DNA of 64,000 nt from a candidate division SR1 bacterium Aalborg_AAW-1 (GTDB taxonomy: Bacteria; Patescibacteriota; Gracilibacteria; Absconditabacterales; Absconditicoccaceae). Under the pieces are notes generated by a model. The model saw only the letters and a list, made by a program, of their open reading frames with translations. It ran no database searches and was not told where the DNA came from. Below are positions 34,078 through 44,517 of this stretch, piece by piece. The stretch lies in assembly GCA_001007975.1 (NCBI GenBank), contig CP011268.1, forward strand, positions 248,001 through 312,000. The letters run 5' to 3'. The translations under genes and the position numbers were made by a program. Within the stretch, counting starts at the first letter, position 1; the number at the start of each line of letters is the position of its first letter.

Positions 34078-34113
34078 TCTGACTTTCAAATGAGGTCAGA
34101 TTTTTCTTTTTTT
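34078..34113 (+). terminator. Rho-independent terminator
   Basis: TCTGAC (34078-34083) and GTCAGA (34095-34100) with an 11-base spacing, followed by TTTTTCTTTTTTT. It separates the ABC ATPase from the large gene block starting at 34168. Confidence 0.75.
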
Positions 34114-34167: not shown

Positions 34168-36864
34168 ATGGACAACACTAATCAAGAACTTATTCTTAAC
34201 ACAACACAGGACAATCCGGTGACTATCATTAACAACATTACTATTAGAGATAATAGTGAAGATTTTTCAGCTACTGGCGGGAATAAGAACATTGACAATA
34301 ATCTCCTACAAACAGATAACCAAAAAGAACAAGCTGAAGTTAATGGTACTGAGGAATTAGGAAATCTTAATAAAGATATTGTTATCCAGAAATTTCAAGA
34401 CGAAACTACCGATTATAGAGCAAATATGACAAACATAAATCCTTTATCAGAAAGTGAGATAAACAAACAAAACAATGACTTACTGATAACAAAAACCAAC
34501 AAAGAACAAGCTATAGCAACTGCTCTCTCAGGAACAACTCATGAACTTCTCAACAGTAAACAAGAAACTATTGAGATGACAGTATCACAGATCAAACAGC
34601 AAATCCATGATCTTAAACAACAAGTAAGATTTGCTGCAAGATGAGAAGGAAAAGATGTCAGGGAAGTAAAAAGATATATTATTGACTGGCTCAATCTTGC
34701 TGAAAAAAGAATCAACAAATATCAAAGAGCAACCAAAAGATTTGGGACTGAAGTCGTGAAAGATAGTCATGAAGCTGCGATGTATGCAAAGATTGCCACA
34801 CTCTTATCAAACAGCAAAGATTATGTATCTCAAGCAATAACATGAGACATTAACGAAGCTAAGAAATTTTTTCCACCGAATGTATTTGAAGATGGTAGCC
34901 CTTATATTCCGGACAAATCACCAAGCAAAGACATCTATAACCAGCAAATCCATCCTGCATGGATCAATAATCTTTCTCCTGCAGAACAAAGAGCTTATGT
35001 ACAGTGCGTAGAAGGATCAGGGTCAAAAAATAGTGGTATCAAAAAATTAGGAAGTCTTATCGACACAAAGATGCATCCATGGCTCTTAGAAAATGGATTT
35101 AACCAACAAGGAGCTAATATCACTTCTGGAGCTATGAAACTATGATTACTTGTCGTAAATGGTGTCACTCTGTGGAATATGGGTAAAAATGTATTTCATA
35201 TGGTTTTTGGATGAGACAAAAAGAAATGAGAATATTTTAGAAACTTTCTTATCAATGCAGGTATCTTTTGAGGGTTAAACTTTATAGATCCAGAAAAAGC
35301 ATTATGAAAACTAAAAGAAACACGAGGTTGGGTTACAGGACAAGAAGGAAACACTACAGTATGATTTGATAAAAGTGGAAATCCTGATTTTTCTGCAGCA
35401 CTGATAGCACTACAAAATAATAACATAAGTAATGATGAAAAAATACAAATTCACTGACCACTTGTAGTAGGAGGTGGTCTTATCGGTCTAAATTATAGAG
35501 AAGCAGCACAAAACAATATCTTTCAAACGAATGGTAACCAAATCACAGGTGTAAATATTGATAATCTAAAAGCATTTTATAATGAAAAATATGCGAGCAA
35601 ATCTGAACTCCGCAATAAATTTATTGAATATGCAAATAATTTAGAAAAAGTACAACAATCTGATCCAAAAATGATTTCAACTATTATGAAACAACAATAT
35701 ATTACAACACAAAATCTTCAAAATCCAGAATTTGCAGATACCATAATTGGTACTCATATTTCGCAAAAACTTAATGAAGCAAAAATAGCAACAAATACTA
35801 TAACTGATCGAAATACATTAGATACAGCGGTTAAAAAATCTAGTCCTACTATTGTACAAGAGATTGGAGATACTAGCTACAATATATTGATTGAGGCAAC
35901 ATTAAAACTTCCTGACTCAATAAAAAAAGAAATCGCTGCGTGAACAATAGAGTTTAAAGTAATTAATTGAAAACTTATCATGCAAGCTCATGGAGAACAA
36001 GCATGACTTGATATTAACAAGCACACTCTTTCTCTCTTCAATAAATCAGGAAATTTATCTGAATTCCCTAATGGAACCAAGGATACTACAGAATTACTTA
36101 ATCTCGCCTATATCATGACCAGAGAGATACAAGAACACAAAGGTAAATTCATGATAGATAATCCTATGTTCTATAGTAAACCATATGGTGAATGGTGACA
36201 TAAAATCAATGCCACTCTATGAGGTCGTGAATGGTTAAAGCCAGGAACTTGGGTCAGTGGAAGATCTGTTACAGTATTAGATGGATCTTGGTTGTTTGGC
36301 GATACAGGTTTATCTAAATTTAAAGAAGATAACGTTATGGAACAATTCGCTGACTATCTCAATAAACTATGAATTTGGAAAGGAGATAATGCTGACCATT
36401 ATATCAACACTACTCTGAAGCAAAGATTAAAAGAACAATATCCTGACCTGACTGATATCGAGCGTCAACAATTACTGAATGATATGTTGTGAATAATACC
36501 AAATCGTTGATCAATAGAGCCTCTTATTCATAGTGGTACTGAATATGTATCAGGCAAAGTAGAGTGAGTATATACATACCTCAGAGATGATATATTTGGA
36601 GCATGATGGGACAAAGTTAAAGAACTCTATAAGTGAGTAGTCAAACGAAGTATCAAATGATGAGTTCTTATGGTAGAACTTGCAGATGGGACAGTTCAAA
36701 ACTTCTGGGAGGGATTACAAACTATTTATCCAACTGATGTTGTGAAAAGAATCCAAACCAAATACAATGCACGATCCAAAACACAATTACAAGAAACAAA
36801 AAATATTGCAAACAAAGTATCAGATTATGTGTTGTGAGAACTACTCTTCTGACCACAACAGTAA
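34168..36864 (+). CDS. Large protein of unknown function, first gene of the 34-43 kb block
   Basis: 898 residues. A disordered N/Q/D-rich head (about 1-120) leads into coiled-coil helices (about 130-215; VSQIKQQIHDLKQQVRFAAR, INKYQRATKRFG). A hydrophobic stretch (about 318-350; LGLLVVNGVTLWNMGKNVFH) may be one or two membrane-associated helices. The second half is mixed alpha/beta (ELLNLAYIMTREIQEHKGKF, DGSWLFGDTGL) and ends GELLFGPQQ. No signal peptide and no family I recognise. The frame runs without TAA or TAG but contains many TGA glycines. The ATG at 34168 is preferred over an upstream one at 34090 that lies inside the terminator. Confidence 0.7.
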
Positions 36865-36906
36865 AAAATACTAAAATACCATTTATTAATTATACTAATT
36901 ACTATC

Positions 36907-38853
36907 ATGGCATTAACAGGTGCATTGAAATGATTATGAGACATGCTCAAATGATGAACTAACGTTGTAAGTAATACAGCCGTTTCTTGACTCCAAGCGA
37001 CCAAATGAGCTGCTCGTATGGGAATTAAGGCTGCATTATTATGATTTTTTCCTGTTGCATCATTATGATATTATGGTCTTACAAGAGCCTTACAACATAT
37101 CCCTCGATGAGTTGGTGAAAAATATAAAGCAATTCATGAAAAAACTTTATGAAGACTTGAAAATGTTCTAAGCTTTTCTGGTGGTGCTAAGGACATAAAA
37201 AATGCTTTCGTATGAGATAGTAATGATGTTTTTGATATTGAAAGCAATGGAGGCGATGGATCAGCTAAAGTCGCTCGTATCCAAGCAAAAGCTGATATAG
37301 AAAAGGCAAAAATTCAACACATTTCTGAGATAGAAAAACTAAAAATGGAAGAAAGATCAAAAAATGCTGATAGAAAATTTGAGATGAGTAAAATAAATAA
37401 GGACGATAAAAGAGAAAATATATCTGAAAAAAGAAAATATAAATTTGAAGACAAAAAATTAAATAATGAAAGACTAAATAACAAAGAAAAAAATCAACAT
37501 GATCTTGCTATTGTCCAAGCAGCACATGAGACTACAAGACATGGTGTAGAGCAAACTACTGAACAGAGAAGAATTGATGCTGATGGGAAAATTCAAGAAA
37601 AAAGAATTGATTCAGGAGACAGACGCCATGAAGCTGACCAAAAATTACAAGAAAAAAGAATTGATTCAGCTGATAAACAGTATGAAAGCAATCAAATGAC
37701 TCAACAAAAACAAATTGAAACTGATGGAAAAATTCAAGAAAAACAATTAGACTCAGGAGACAGACGCCATGAAGCTGACCAAAAATTACAAGAAAAGAAA
37801 TTAGATACTGAAGCAACTACTGCGCAAGAGACACTGAAGCAAGAAACTGAAAGAGAAAAAAACAAAACTGAAAAAGAAATTAAAGAAATTGAAAAAGATG
37901 GCAAAATTGAAGAGAAGAAGTTGGATAGTGAAATTGAGAAATATAAGATTGAACAAGAGAAATTAACCAAAGAATTTGAAGCTAATCAAGCACTTGCTCA
38001 ACATAGATTAACAATCAATAAAGAAAAATATATTGCAAAACTAGAAAATGAAAAAAACACAAACAAAAAAGAAGATATAGATCCAACATTATGGGCTCAG
38101 TACGATGCTGATGTAAAGAAAAATATACAAGAAAGCGAAGATATGCTTAGTACTAGAGCAGCAACCACTACTCTCGAGGAACAGACTAAAATACTATCTA
38201 AACAAATAGGATTTTTAGAAGCAATACGCGACGATCAAAAAGATGCAACACTCAAAAACACGATTCAAACTTCTATAAAATCTCTACAGTCAGAAGTCAA
38301 TAAGATAGAAACAGAGATAAAATCAAGAAACAAATCACTATCGCTACCTACAACTATTAAATTATCAGATGAAGAACAAACCATCAGTGATTTAAAAAAC
38401 ACAGTAGATAATTATGATGATAAAACTAATAAAAAAATTATTGAAAATCAAATTAATGAGGCTACTAGATTGATGACAAAAATTGATACTTATAATAAAA
38501 TGACAAATGATAGTGCAGAAACTCTCAAATTAAGTAATATGAAAGATGAAATTGATAAAGTTATCAAAAAACTCAATAACCTCAATAAAAAACCTCATGA
38601 ACTAGGAAAAGACAAAATGGAAACATTAGAAGATAAAAAGAAAAATATTTTCCAAGCATTAGATGTCCACATTGGTATGGATAAAAGTGCTGTCAATAAG
38701 TGAGTTTTACAAAGAGATCTGGATGATGCATTAGAACATAAGTGAAAAATTGATTGACACAAATCACAAGCTAGCGACACAGAAAAAGTTGAACTTCAAA
38801 AATGGATAAATGAACTTACAGATAAGATAAGTAAAGCAAGAAAAAAATTATAG
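36907..38853 (+). CDS. Coiled-coil protein with hydrophobic N-terminus
   Basis: 648 residues. The N-terminus is glycine-rich and hydrophobic (about 35-58; IKAALLGFFPVASLGYYGL), then residues about 115-480 are a long, highly charged coiled coil with many K/E/D/Q residues. Within it is an exact block repeat: SGDRRHEADQKLQEK occurs twice, 46 residues apart, with a related third copy between. A predicted rod of several tens of nanometres anchored at one end would fit. It is 42 bases after the first gene of the block. Function unknown; a structural or tether protein is an inference. Confidence 0.7.
37612..37800 (+). repeat. Internal repeats in the coiled-coil gene
   Basis: A stretch encoding SGDRRHEADQKLQEK is near identical at about 37614-37660 and 37752-37798 (period 138 bases, 46 codons), so the coiled coil is a multiple of heptads (46 is not a multiple of 7, so a shift occurs). 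Copies are close enough at the DNA level for recombination to change rod length. Confidence 0.7.
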
Positions 38854-38877
38854 ATATTTTATATAAATCAATATAGA

Positions 38878-40098
38878 ATGCTTAAACCCATTATAGGAGC
38901 TATAACCAATCCCGTTGCACAAACCTCATGACATGCTATGAGAGCTCTTTGAGGATGACTAGATTCTAGTAGACAAAATATACGTGGATTAAAGCGCTCT
39001 GTAAAAGAAATACAAGCCAGTGTAAAATCTTATTTTAAAAATGCTACCAACACAAGTCATGCTGTTGCAGAATGATCTCAAGATATAGCAAAATTAGTAT
39101 GATGATTGCCATATAAAGTACGTATGTTACCTGCAAGTTCGTGAGACAAAACAATATTATCTAAAAAGTGAGACGCCATATATCTTTCTGAGCAAAGTCT
39201 TAATAGTACTGATTTTCAACAAGAGCTAAAAAAAGCAATGGACTGACAGGGAATACAGATCGCAGACATTAGTAAACTCCGTGTCAGTATGGATTATTTT
39301 TGAAGATTACAATTTTCTTATCCTGGCAAATTTAATAACCAAAAAGTATTTCTTGATCAGTTCGGAGAATGAACACCAACTCATACCGCTCTTACTAATG
39401 CTATATCCTGATTTATTCAAACTGAAAACAAAAAAATATGTGCCAAGATTGCTCTATGACACATACTCAAAGATAATATTTCAAAAAACAACTGGTTTAT
39501 CAGGTGAGTAGTTGATGGGAAAAAGGAGTCTCTTTCTCTTGATAATGCAATGCATATTATACTATGAGAAGAAAATGTAACTGAATCACAACGCAACGTA
39601 CTTGATCAACTTTTACAAGAACAAGATTCATCAATTCATGAGATTAGAGATCTTATCGATACGGAAAATATTTCACCTAAAGATATCATATCTCAGTATC
39701 CCTCATGAAGAAAAATAATGGACAAAGCTGTTTATCTTCATCATAACAATTATTACTCTTTTGATAATGTAACAAATACTAAGAGTTCAACAGCTCCAAA
39801 TCAGACAGCACCAACTACATCAGATAATAATAACATTGATACATCACCATCATCGTCTGTCACACAACAATCTAATCAAGAGAATAACATAAATAGTAGT
39901 GATGTTGTTAAAAACTTCGTTAAATTAGAAGAAATCACTACTCCAGAACAAGCACAAGAAAAACTCAAATTTGTTGATAATTTTATCAAATATGCTCCAG
40001 AACTAGCAGTAAAAGATATACAATTATACGCAGAATTAATCACTCTCAAAACACAGTTAGAAAGTATTGCTACGAAGCCACTATCTCTTTCAACATAG
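38878..40098 (+). CDS. Unknown protein of the 34-43 kb block
   Basis: 406 residues. An N-terminal glycine-rich patch (RALGGGLDSSRQNIRGLKR) is followed by a helical part, a strand-rich middle (SLNSTDFQQELKKAMDGQG, VSMDYFGRLQFSYPG), a low-complexity S/T/N linker (about 295-340) and a C-terminal helix pair (EQAQEKLKFVDNFIK). No signal peptide and no recognised domain. It follows the coiled-coil gene by 24 bases. A terminator follows, so the block may be split into two transcripts, with a promoter for the next gene. Confidence 0.65.
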
Positions 40099-40110
40099 AT
40101 GAGTTAGCAT

Positions 40111-40138
40111 AATCTCCAAAAAAGGAGATTTTTTATTT
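40111..40138 (+). terminator. Rho-independent terminator
   Basis: AATCTCC and GGAGATT around a six-A loop, then TTTTATTTT, directly after the stop at 40098. Confidence 0.8.
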
Positions 40139-40172
40139 TGTCAATAAAATAATACGCAAAATCTCAGTATTT

Positions 40173-40200
40173 TTGACTCTGTAACGATAATAAATATTAT
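40173..40200 (+). promoter_or_regulatory. Promoter of the second half of the block
   Basis: TTGACT at 40173-40178 and TATTAT at 40195-40200 (16-base spacer), between the terminator at 40111 and the ATG at 40240. Confidence 0.5.
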
Positions 40201-40239
40201 TATCATAATGAGTATTTTATAACCTATGCACTCCATATC

Positions 40240-42102
40240 ATGGATGAAAAAATCAAATCACTAACTGATGCAATCAATAATACTACTGAATCTGAAAAAT
40301 CCAAAAAAATTGACACTATCAATACTGCTCTTAAAGCACTTGTTCTTGACTGAAAATTTTCTGTACCCAAAAAAGACAATCCAACAGAGCAAGAGAGTAA
40401 AACATTCGATGGTAATATAAACAATGATGAAATTGCTAGTATTATAGAATCACTCATCAAAGACGAACCCGATCAAGCTAAAAAAAATCAGTATAAATCA
40501 GACCTAACTGCTGCATTACAATGAGCAAGAGATGCTCTGAAGACATTAGCCAGTGAATCTCAAATCAGACAAGCAATCGAAAATGAAACAACTCAAACTT
40601 CTGACAGTTTATCAGGTCTCGCTACAGAAGTGAACGACAACATGCATATCTATTCTACACAAGAACTTGCAAAATTTGTAGAAGCATGAGAAAAAAAAGG
40701 AAAATCACGAAAAGAGCTTCGAGCTACTCCATGATATATACGTACAATACAGAATCTCATTCTAGAGTTATGAGCACAAGACCCTTCCATCGACAAGAAG
40801 AAACTCGAAGATGGTATCTATGGAAACGCAACAGAAGCTTGAGTTCTCACCATACAAAAGATTCTTAATAAACCTCCATATAATAGTTACAAAAATCTTA
40901 TTGAAGATGGGAAACCAGGTCCGTTCACACTCTGAGCATTACTCTACCCTATTGACGGAAAGATCACTTGGGACAAACTTCTAGAAGACAAAAAATCTGG
41001 GAAACTCATAATCACACCAGAATTAGTACAGAAAAAAGAAATTTCGGCAACTAAAGCTAAAAAAGACAATAAATCATCAACAAAAGCAGCTGATCCAGAA
41101 TGATGACCAGTAGAAAATAAAAATCCCAATCTTACCAAAGATAAAAATGGAAAACGAATACCAAAAAAAGGATTTGCACGAGAAAATTATAAAGACAAAA
41201 ATAATTTAGAGGTAAAAGAACTATCAATAAAAAATAATATTATAGAAAAAATTACCACACTAAAACAATTACCAGAAAATTATACATGGGCTAAGGAAAA
41301 TAATGTGTCATTTCTATATACAGATATTATAACCAATATCGAATATCGTTTTTTTAGTAATGGTCGTGTAAGCATAAATGTTCCATGAAAAAAAACAATA
41401 ATGCAATATTCTAAAGAAACAATAAAACTATTAAATGATCAATCAAAAGAAAAAAATATAATAATTAAAAACTTATGATTAAAAAAATTCGAATGAGAAA
41501 GTTTTAGAAGAGAATGAAGAGAATGAATATATTTCTTTGATAAAGATAATACTCTTCATTATCTAGAAGAATGATTTAATATGGACTCTTGGCAAACTTT
41601 ATCTAAGTGATCTGATAATCGAATTAATCATATTAATCGAGATAATAATATTGATAAAATTTTATCTCATATATGAACAAATCCTGTTGCTTGTGCACAA
41701 CTAATAGACATGGCAACAGCTGGTTGATGAACATATGATAATGCTCTCAAAAAAATCTTAAATCATCTAATAAAATTAAGTAGAAATTGAAACAAAATAG
41801 CACAAGAAACAAGTAGATATTATGACTTAATCAAACACAACAATCCATTAGACAATAATGATAAAAGTCTATTAGAAATTATAAGTGAAGAGACAAAAAA
41901 AGATGAAAACAGCTTATTCAATAGTTTTTTTATCGATCTACTACAATATCCACAATACAATACATGGATCAAAAATACTCTTCTAAGAAAAAAAATTTAT
42001 TTTACTAGTAATAAAATATTTAATCATAATATTTTCAAAAAACGAAGAGAAAATAACAATATAGAATGGGATATAAATGATGATCGACATTCAACTAAAT
42101 AA
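40240..42102 (+). CDS. Large protein with peptidoglycan-binding-like motif
   Basis: 620 residues, no signal peptide. A helical N-terminal part is followed at about residues 168-236 by a motif pattern of the PG_binding_1 fold: IQNLILELG, LEDGIYGNATEAGVLTIQKI, then EDGKPGPFTLGALLYP. That is the DGxxGxxT...xxxQ...DGxxGxxTxxAL pattern. A basic low-complexity stretch (about 275-310; KKDNKSSTKAADPE) precedes a polar helical second half ending in a basic tail. The domain suggests contact with murein, but the missing export signal means the route is unclear. It is followed by the transglycosylase-like gene 41 bases later. Confidence 0.65.
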
Positions 42103-42143
42103 TCTTTAGCTCTAGACTAGTTTAGTATTTATTTATCGTTTAT

Positions 42144-43355
42144 ATGAATAAATTTCATAACACTATATATGATTTCAATGACCTCTTACATGATAAAGTA
42201 GAAAAACATGTAAATGACCAATCTAAAAGAGAGAAGCTTCATGACTATATCGATAAAGGAATTCATGGAGCCTTGTCGTTGAATAAAAAAGTATCAGATA
42301 GTAAACAATATACAAAAGAAATACTCGTCCCAAAAACGAAACAGACTATCTCAGCAATATCGCAAAAAATTATTAACAATCCAAAGAAATCACTCATAAC
42401 AACCTTACTCTTAAGTGCAGCCTTAACATCAAGAATTAGTATTCCAAACCAAAACTGATCACAGAAAGATTATAACAACGCTATTACAACATCTCAATAC
42501 ATTCCTGATACTATAGATCATTCTGAAGACAATAAAACTAAAATACTAGTATCACCCCAGAGGAAAAAAGAACTGTTTGGAGACTACATTGCGATGAATA
42601 AAAATTTACAACAATTTAGCAAAAAAACTGAATTTGGTAGACGAGTTAGAACATTAAGATATCATAAGAATATCCACAGAGCATTAGAAAAATATGCACC
42701 AGATATTAGATTTGAATCATTTTTAGGATTATATATGGTAGAAGGAGAAGGAAATACAGCATCAATCAACCATAGGGATGGATGAGCATGACTGCTTCAT
42801 ATTCAACCTGATGTAGCTAAAAAAGACTTAGATATGAAAATATTTACTGATCATCCAGATTACAAAAGATACGAATTTGATCTACTCAAAAAACAAGGAT
42901 ATTCTACAAGCAAAATTTATGCCCTTCATGGTAAAATTATTAAACAAATTGTACAAGAAAACGATGGACAAGAAAGACTAGCATGACTAGATGAAAGATT
43001 TCATCCGCAAATTTGTTTAGATAAAGTAGCGCAAAGAATGCAAAAAGACTATATCTACGCCAAAAAAAAACTTACTGACAACCAAAGCTGACCAAAAGAA
43101 CAAGCATTTAAAAAATATGTAAAAGAAACACTTCGCTCAGATGTATTTCAATATGCGGCCATTAATGGATATAACAAATGAACGAGATCGTTTCTCACTA
43201 TTGCTACTAAAAATTCATGAAATCATATGAAAAATGTTCAACATCATATAACCCACACACAAGATTATACAAATCTCCTCAACCAATGAATTGCTAATGG
43301 ATTAGAAAAAGAAGATCTATGGAATTATATTATAGAAAATAGTACAAAACAATAA
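42144..43355 (+). CDS. Lytic transglycosylase-like protein
   Basis: 403 residues. The N-terminus is charged and helical, with one hydrophobic segment at about 80-98 (SLITTLLLSAALTSRI). A C-terminal domain from about residue 184 resembles SLT-type transglycosylases: LGLYMVEGEGN (candidate catalytic glutamate), GGAGLLHIQPDVA, FHPQICLDKVAQRM and AAINGYNKG, the YNxG motif. These occur in the expected order, but residues between them are unlike typical SLT domains. If active it would cleave peptidoglycan, possibly at the cell's own wall or a neighbour's. It ends the five-gene block and is followed, on the other strand, by dprA. Confidence 0.65.
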
Positions 43356-43356
43356 T

Positions 43357-44397
43357 CTATATTATCCTCCAAACCACTCCATCATTCACGACCTTCCCCA
43401 TCACTTCAGCAACACTGAGATGTGACATCACTTCCTCTATCCCCAATCCTGTCTGACTAACCAAGGCATTCAATGCTAGTCAGTCAGGATTTTTTTGTAA
43501 GATTACAATCACCTCACTACTCTCTTCCTGAAAACTTCAAGAAATAGCCACTCTTCCAGCAATGGATGAATCCCATCAAGGGCAGAGGGGTTGGAGTGAG
43601 GTGATCTTCCCAAAATACTGACCCAGCATTTCATCAATATCTACAACGGGTTTCACTAATCACTGTTGCATATAATGTCCCAATCCTTGTGATGTCGGTG
43701 AGAATATACTTCAAGGCGCTCCATATACATCCTTATGCATACTACGAGCAAAGTCTACCGTGATTAGACTACCAGATTTCATAGTAGCTTCTGGCACAAA
43801 TACCATATCTGAGAGTCAAGCCACAATACGGTTACGTTGAGGAAACGTATATCTTTCAGGTCATTTATCAAGTTTAAACTCAGACAATACAAGTCATCCG
43901 TGATCAATAATTTTTTGGATCATTTCTCTTTTGCTACTTTTCATAGCTCGTTATAATCCTGCTCACAATACTGCAATCGTAGGTATAGTATGTTCTATCG
44001 ATAATTCATGACACAACATATCGACACCATCTGCTAATCCTGATATAGTAACCAAATTATACGTCTTAACAAACTGAAAGAGATGTTCGGTCACTTGTTT
44101 CCCATAAGATGAAACATTACGAGGTCATACGACTGCGAGTATATTCTGATGCAAAAGTTCCACATTACCTTTGCCATATATCACATAAGGTGATGATGAT
44201 ATCTGACGAAATTTGAAATGATACGCATCATCATCTGCAGTAGAAGCAAAAACAGATTGATCCTGACACCATTGGACGATGTGATTGTATTTTTTCTGTA
44301 CCGTATCAGTCATCACGACCATCTCTTGTTGCAGTGGTCTCAATTCTGATATTTTTATATCACTAGCTGAGTAATACATTGCTTTTGAAAAAGACAT
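43357..44397 (-). pseudogene. dprA: dprA interrupted by an in-frame TAA
   Basis: A 346-codon DprA/Smf frame, the loader of RecA onto incoming single-stranded DNA in transformation. Before the break: VVGPRNVSSYGKQVTEHLFQ, ISGLADGVDMLCHEL and TIAVLGAGL. Then codon 149 (43951-43953) is TAA. After it the same frame continues with RAMKSSKREMI, GGLVLSEFKL, RYTFPQRNRIVAGLSD, MKSGSLITVDFARS and GAPGSIFSPTSQG, through to TAG at the 3' end. Codon 149 lies where a TGA glycine would fit, so one G-to-A change would create the stop. A restart ATG lies two codons on (43944), leaving 195 residues. It could be a pseudogene, a two-piece protein or a sequencing error. Confidence 0.8.
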
Positions 44398-44517
44398 AAG
44401 CATAAGAATAATGTTTAAAATCACTATTTTTTTCCTTGTATCTTCGTACCAATTTAACTATATTCATATAGTACGAAAAATGCAAAACTTTTACTACTCT
44501 AAATACACATAACATAT

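What the first reader, a model, noticed from the sequence alone, without database searches (positions are those of the whole stretch)
34168..43355. Five-gene block of large unknown proteins with wall-binding and wall-cutting candidates
Seen: five co-directional genes (898, 648, 406, 620, 403 residues), framed by a terminator at 34078 and with an internal terminator/promoter; a rod-like coiled coil with a hydrophobic end, a PG-binding-like motif, and an SLT-like domain behind a membrane segment. Inference: they form a wall-associated machine, perhaps for attachment to or attack on a neighbouring cell, which would fit code-25 bacteria known to be predatory or host-dependent.
Basis: partly seen in the sequence, partly recalled or inferred. 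Interest (0 to 1): 0.75.

Follow-up and report, generated by a model that had tools for sequence, protein, structure and literature searches.

The report
Wall-cutting and wall-binding gene pair
In the genome of a tiny, probably host-dependent bacterium that reads TGA as glycine, a block of five genes holds a likely cell-wall-cutting enzyme next to a cell-wall-binding protein that lacks the usual export tag; the other three genes have no detectable relatives.

Summary
The five open frames exist exactly as described (898, 648, 406, 620 and 403 aa, code 25), in two likely transcription units (P0001-3, P0004-5). P0005 is a divergent SLT-type lytic transglycosylase. Relatives in four other genomes of the family score above Pfam's SLT cut-off, share Glu200, DGG-G and A-N-Y, and its model's best fold matches are lytic transglycosylases. 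P0004 belongs, at moderate strength, to an apparently undescribed modular family: a leaderless helical 'head' plus PG_binding_1 domain, fused in relatives to wall enzymes (D-Ala-D-Ala dipeptidase), LRR or MORN repeats. Ordinary PG_binding_1 proteins of the same genomes carry signal peptides. P0001-P0003 have no detectable relative in the 50-59 genomes searched.
The five genes are not a conserved machine. P0004 and P0005 relatives lie alone elsewhere, and in the best syntenic relative the slot between the ABC gene and DprA holds a 1386-aa and a 201-aa gene instead. So wall binding and wall cutting are supported for two of five genes. A five-part machine, and attack on a neighbour, are not shown. 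Most likely P0004-P0005 locally open or mark the wall around an envelope structure. The novel reading is that leaderless wall proteins are exported effectors.

The parts
34078..34100 (+). terminator-like hairpin with T run, after the ABC ATPase gene
   Evidence: sequence
34168..36864 (+). P0001, 898 aa, no detectable relative; one hydrophobic segment (aa 318-336 = 35119-35175), no signal peptide
36907..38853 (+). P0002, 648 aa, K/E-rich coiled coil (about aa 110-400) with internal repeats behind one hydrophobic segment (aa 35-53)
38878..40098 (+). P0003, 406 aa, no detectable relative, no hydrophobic segment
40111..40130 (+). terminator-like hairpin with T run between P0003 and P0004
40173..40200 (+). 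promoter-like site TTGACT-16-TATTAT, 40 nt before the P0004 start
40240..42102 (+). P0004, 620 aa, leaderless head + PG_binding_1-like domain + repeat domain
40633..40944 (+). P0004 head helix and PG-binding-like domain (aa 132-235)
   Evidence: head-PGBD profile, aa 114-235, i-E 0.0046, 13.9 bits; alignment; PGBD profile score above all local shuffles
41296..41568 (+). P0004 repeat region shared with P0007 and P0011 (aa 353-443)
42144..43355 (+). P0005, 403 aa, SLT-type lytic transglycosylase candidate
42390..42446 (+). P0005 membrane segment (aa 83-101), lysine-rich side inward
42636..43181 (+). P0005 SLT core (aa 165-346): Glu200, DGGAGLLHIQ, RFHP, AINGYNKG

Best explanation
The block is a lineage-specific envelope locus of a code-25 Gracilibacteria-type bacterium, made of two transcription units. 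Unit 2 is the understandable part. P0005 sits in the cytoplasmic membrane by aa 83-101 with its SLT domain outside and cuts glycan strands with Glu200. P0004 holds to peptidoglycan by its PG-binding domain and positions or marks the same site. Together they open or remodel the wall locally, most likely to let an envelope-spanning structure pass. Unit 1 (P0001-P0003: two proteins with one hydrophobic segment each, one of them a long coiled coil, and a soluble partner) would be part of that structure. Supported by results: the gene layout, SLT homology, PG-binding-like domain, absence of signal peptides. Inferred: topology, joint action, and the role of unit 1.
For: P0005: E 1e-9 to P0006; profile hits in G059 (9e-39) and G062 (8e-19). 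P0006, P0008, P0009 and P0010 all score above the SLT cut-off. Five-way invariant Glu200, DGG-G, RF-P, A-N-Y. AlphaFold pLDDT 62.6; Foldseek first MltE (prob 0.94), third phiKZ gp144. The only PDB profile hit is lytic transglycosylase C, E 0.026. P0004. In the 1.04 Mb genome the only PG_binding_1 trace is P0004 (E 0.7) and no PF01464 hit is reported, so the one PG-binder seen and the one SLT-like protein seen are neighbours.
Against: P0005 itself scores nothing in Pfam, and Foldseek E-values are weak (0.25). The P0004 model is poor (pLDDT 41.5), so its fold is unconfirmed. P0004 has no leader, so how it would reach the wall is unknown. P0001-P0003 have no link to a wall beyond co-location. The genes are not together in any other genome seen. 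Pfam missed P0005, so other divergent SLT proteins in this genome could be missed too.
Confidence: 0.45

Rival explanations
1. P0004 and related leaderless wall proteins are effectors exported without Sec, for instance through the patescibacterial type IV secretion system, and act on the wall of a host or prey cell. The head would be the sorting signal, the PG-binding domain the anchor, the C-terminus the warhead.
For: The head-PGBD family is modular with a shared N-terminus and variable C-termini (M15 dipeptidase in L120 and L121, LRR in L187 and L188, MORN in L186, glucosaminidase-like in L148). Head members lack leaders, while 20 of the PG_binding_1 hits listed from the same genomes have one. 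A second leaderless class carries SLT domains, in genus g13 beside T4SS pilin genes. Leaderless wall hydrolases are the cargo of bacteria-killing T4SSs (PMC6536674), and Patescibacteria have a T4SS of unknown cargo (PMC12102498).
Against: No export shown; T4SS pilin domains are present in 5-18 copies per genome, so nearness is weak evidence. No immunity gene recognised. P0005 has a membrane anchor, unlike its relatives, and fits own-wall action. PMC12102498 reports loss of conjugation parts but, in the passages read, no protein cargo.
Confidence: 0.22
2. Ordinary own-wall autolysin pair (P0004, P0005) that happens to lie beside three fast-evolving orphan genes; no machine.
For: P0005 and P0004 relatives stand alone in varied housekeeping contexts. 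Syntenic slots in relatives hold other large genes. The 1386-aa protein at the slot in G010 shows no significant similarity to P0001.
Against: P0001-P0003 run in the same direction with gaps of 24-42 nt; three of five proteins carry a hydrophobic segment.
Confidence: 0.25
3. Remnant of a virus or mobile element whose lysis and tail-like proteins persist.
For: Orphan genes near tRNA genes; SLT, PG-binding and coiled coil are also phage features.
Against: No PHROG hits of substance (the best, 3e-4, is an unknown family), no viral contig or phage record relative, no structural phage gene in the flanks scanned, no composition break.
Confidence: 0.05

Closest known systems
SLT family lytic transglycosylases (Pfam PF01464, GH23; MltE, MltC, phiKZ gp144)
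   Same: Catalytic Glu followed by a GxGL-HxQ motif and an AxNxY-NKG motif; all-helical model whose best fold matches are MltE and gp144
   Different: E-G instead of the usual E-S after the catalytic Glu; below Pfam detection; an 80-residue cytoplasmic N-terminus before a signal-anchor
PG_binding_1 proteins (PF01471)
   Same: Q...DG-YGN-T...Q...DG-PG-T pattern in P0004; relatives of the head family score up to 4e-14
   Different: Leaderless, with a conserved helical head before the domain and repeats or unknown sequence after it
VirB1-type hydrolases of T4SSs (PMC12102498)
   Same: An SLT enzyme thought to open the wall for a channel; an SLT relative (P0006) lies about 1.3 kb from a VirB4/TraG-type ATPase gene in G009
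   Different: Outside g13 and G020 no close T4SS neighbourhood shown; in the window only a weak T4SS_pilin gene 2.6 kb away, with short ribosomal-protein-like frames and tRNA genes between
X-Tfe effectors of bacteria-killing T4SSs (PMC6536674)
   Same: Leaderless, modular, wall-degrading C-termini in the P0004 family
   Different: Shared part is N-terminal, not the C-terminal XVIPCD; no immunity partner seen; export untested
Surface and lytic proteins of predatory Vampirococcus (PMC8080830)
   Same: Lytic transglycosylase and very large proteins in a related host-dependent lineage
   Different: No shared gene block shown; that paper predicts function from annotation

Membership tests
SLT lytic transglycosylase (PF01464) | profile match over the curated cut-off | tested here: inconclusive
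   P0005 itself no match; four homologues over the cut-off
SLT lytic transglycosylase (PF01464) | catalytic Glu and the two downstream motifs | tested here: met
   invariant E200, DGG-G, A-N-Y in five sequences
SLT lytic transglycosylase (PF01464) | lysozyme-like fold | tested here: inconclusive
   pLDDT 62.6; MltE prob 0.94 but E 0.25
SLT lytic transglycosylase (PF01464) | 1,6-anhydro product from peptidoglycan | not testable with these tools
   needs an enzyme assay
PG_binding_1 (PF01471), P0004 | profile match over the curated cut-off | tested here: not met
   13.2 bits against 23
Leaderless head-PGBD family (this work), P0004 | match across both head and PG-binding domain | tested here: met
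   model 8-116, i-E 0.0046 against the protein set, with P0004 not in the profile; alignment
Leaderless head-PGBD family (this work), P0004 | no N-terminal signal peptide | tested here: met
   no hydrophobic segment in P0004
VirB1-like T4SS hydrolase, P0005 | encoded in a T4SS cluster | tested here: not met
   no VirB4-type gene among the window genes scanned
X-Tfe T4SS effector, P0004 | C-terminal XVIPCD and immunity gene | not tested
   no XVIPCD model was run; resemblance by principle only
Prophage | capsid, terminase or portal genes nearby | tested here: not met

The most novel reading that the evidence does not exclude
Gracilibacteria-type bacteria carry an undescribed arsenal of leaderless modular wall proteins (a shared head plus PG-binding domain with exchangeable wall-enzyme or repeat C-termini, and a parallel leaderless SLT class), exported by a Sec-independent route to breach the wall of host cells; P0004, and more loosely P0005, are this genome's members.
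Probability: 0.2. Interest if true: 0.8.

Novelty: new variant of a known kind. Interest (0 to 1): 0.5.

Why it matters
How these tiny bacteria get through the wall of the cells they live on is an open question, and the cargo of the patescibacterial T4SS is unknown. A recognisable leaderless head shared by wall-active proteins gives a concrete sorting-signal candidate to test, and the block names a wall-cutting enzyme in a genome where the standard SLT profile reports none.

Tried and rejected
P0001, P0002 and P0003 against Pfam, PHROGs, NCBIfam and PADLOC, and against 50-59 relatives; P0001 also against PDB sequences and viral contigs: nothing convincing. P0001 against the syntenic 1386-aa protein of G010 by phmmer, hhalign and shuffled Smith-Waterman: not significant, so only positional equivalence is claimed. 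Shared N-terminal extension of P0004 with L186 proteins: looked alike by eye, not supported by profile. Structure of P0004: failed. The window's T4SS_pilin gene as evidence for a T4SS role: weak, because such domains occur 5-18 times per genome. DprA frameshift: it is an in-frame TAA, not a shift. SGNH and NlpC/P60-like C-termini of L189 and L190 were seen by eye only; Pfam did not confirm them.

Full report
Observation. The window is G000:C1:248001-312000 of a single-contig 1.04 Mb genome. Under table 25 the five frames are open as stated. Three of the P0005 motif glycines (214, 216, 346) are TGA, and the first two columns are Gly in every relative, so the code and the frame are right. Terminator-like hairpins follow the ABC gene and P0003, and a 10/12 promoter-like site precedes P0004. 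The number of such hairpins is not above chance, but both + strand ones fall in the gaps, which are 3% of the region. The block therefore reads as two units: 34168-40098 and 40240-43355.

P0005. No Pfam hit on its own. Among 59 relatives one other genome gives E 1e-9. That relative, P0006, carries SLT at 3e-6, over the cut-off. A two-row profile reached G059, G062 and G061; all score as SLT. The five-way alignment keeps Glu200, DGG-G, RF-P and A-N-Y, the motif set of SLT enzymes, with E-G in place of the usual E-S. A scan of GTDB contigs with the alignment added relatives in Woesearchaeota and a Saprospiraceae bin, where the archaeal copies carry ES and a Tat- or Sec-like leader. The AlphaFold model is middling (62.6), yet Foldseek ranks MltE first and phiKZ gp144 third, and the profile's only PDB match is a lytic transglycosylase. 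P0005 differs from its Gracilibacteria relatives P0006, P0008, P0009 and P0010 in having a hydrophobic segment (aa 83-101) before the SLT domain, which would place the enzyme outside its own membrane.

P0004. PG_binding_1 is sub-threshold. Relatives P0007 (G030) and P0011 (G069) share a repeat region, and P0007 has PG_binding_1 at 4e-14. A profile of PG-binding domains from the family scores P0004 above all locally shuffled copies. A longer profile, head plus PG-binding domain, built without P0004, matches it over model positions 8-116 at i-E 0.0046, and the alignment shows the head helix and the DG-YGN-T / DG-PG-T motifs. This head-PGBD architecture occurs in several genera of the family and in other families of the class (where the profile includes P0004, so the hit in G000 itself is not independent). 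C-termini vary: M15 D-Ala-D-Ala dipeptidase, glucosaminidase-like, LRR, MORN, other repeats. With the conserved start Met, members lack a hydrophobic leader, while 20 of the other PG_binding_1 hits listed have one. SLT proteins show the same split: about 300-aa anchored forms against leaderless forms of 300-1000 aa.

P0001-P0003. No relative in the genomes searched and no family match. P0002 has a K/E-rich repetitive coil behind a hydrophobic segment; P0001 has one hydrophobic segment; P0003 none. Their function is inferred from position only.

Do the genes belong together? RNase Y neighbourhoods of about 40 family genomes were read. G010 keeps the 205-aa-like gene, the ABC ATPase, DprA and RNase Y, but between ABC and DprA it has a 1386-aa leaderless protein, a 201-aa protein and a 145-aa gene on the other strand. 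In genus g19 genomes, 1494-1726-aa leaderless proteins and large surface proteins lie upstream of RNase Y. In genus g13 a 740-1012-aa leaderless protein, with SLT in most, stands several genes upstream, beside T4SS pilin genes. The slot thus tends to hold large leaderless proteins but not this set. P0004 and P0005 relatives lie elsewhere and apart. A conserved five-gene machine is not supported. The P0004-P0005 pairing is plausible because this genome shows no other PG_binding_1 or SLT match; since Pfam missed P0005, others may be missed.

Mechanism. Most likely, P0005 cuts and P0004 holds the wall at one site, opening a gap for an envelope structure that may include P0001-P0003 (0.45). An effector reading (0.22) rests on the leaderless modular family and on analogy with T4SS effectors (PMC6536674) in a lineage with a T4SS of unknown cargo (PMC12102498). 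A plain autolysin pair beside orphans (0.25) is the sober alternative. Related Gracilibacteria and Absconditabacteria are reported as host-dependent or predatory, with transglycosylases and giant proteins noted (PMC8080830, PMC11452946). No paper found in these searches describes the head-PGBD family, but only open-licence papers were searched.

Noticed in passing
L119, L120, L121, L122, L123, L148, L186, L187, L188, L189, L190, L192, L195: Modular leaderless head + PG_binding_1 family across the class, with exchangeable C-termini (M15 dipeptidase, LRR, MORN and others); in L186 two members of 795 and 1006 aa stand in tandem.
   Followed up: partly
L186 7005-7307, L195 1225-1515: A small 96-100-aa acidic protein precedes a large leaderless wall-binding protein in two genera (PG-binding in G003, LysM in G026); looks like a chaperone-cargo pair.
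   Followed up: no
L169 9758-10663, L170 1225-2133, L173 9809-10660, L174 9734-10642: SLT transglycosylases with Tat- or Sec-like leaders in Woesearchaeota contigs (L169 also carries a diphthine-synthase-like gene), in archaea expected to lack peptidoglycan.
   Followed up: partly
window 43357-44424 (-): DprA is interrupted by one in-frame TAA; intact in G010 and G007.
   Followed up: partly
L096, L097, L103, L105, L107: Leaderless SLT proteins of 895-1012 aa, in L107 with a GDSL/SGNH esterase C-terminus, beside T4SS_pilin genes in genus g13.
   Followed up: partly
L098 9080-11529; L106 9351-13008; L094 1610-4121: Neighbouring wall-enzyme genes: SLT next to NlpC/P60-like (L098), SLT-amidase-like next to a deacetylase-like gene (L106), SLT next to an amidase-like gene (L094).
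   Followed up: no
window 38878-42102: P0003 and P0004 use TGA for 61-70% of glycines, against 13-33% in rny, mutL and the ABC gene.
   Followed up: no
L130 9696-13856: 1386-aa orphan with several hydrophobic segments at the syntenic slot in G010.
   Followed up: partly
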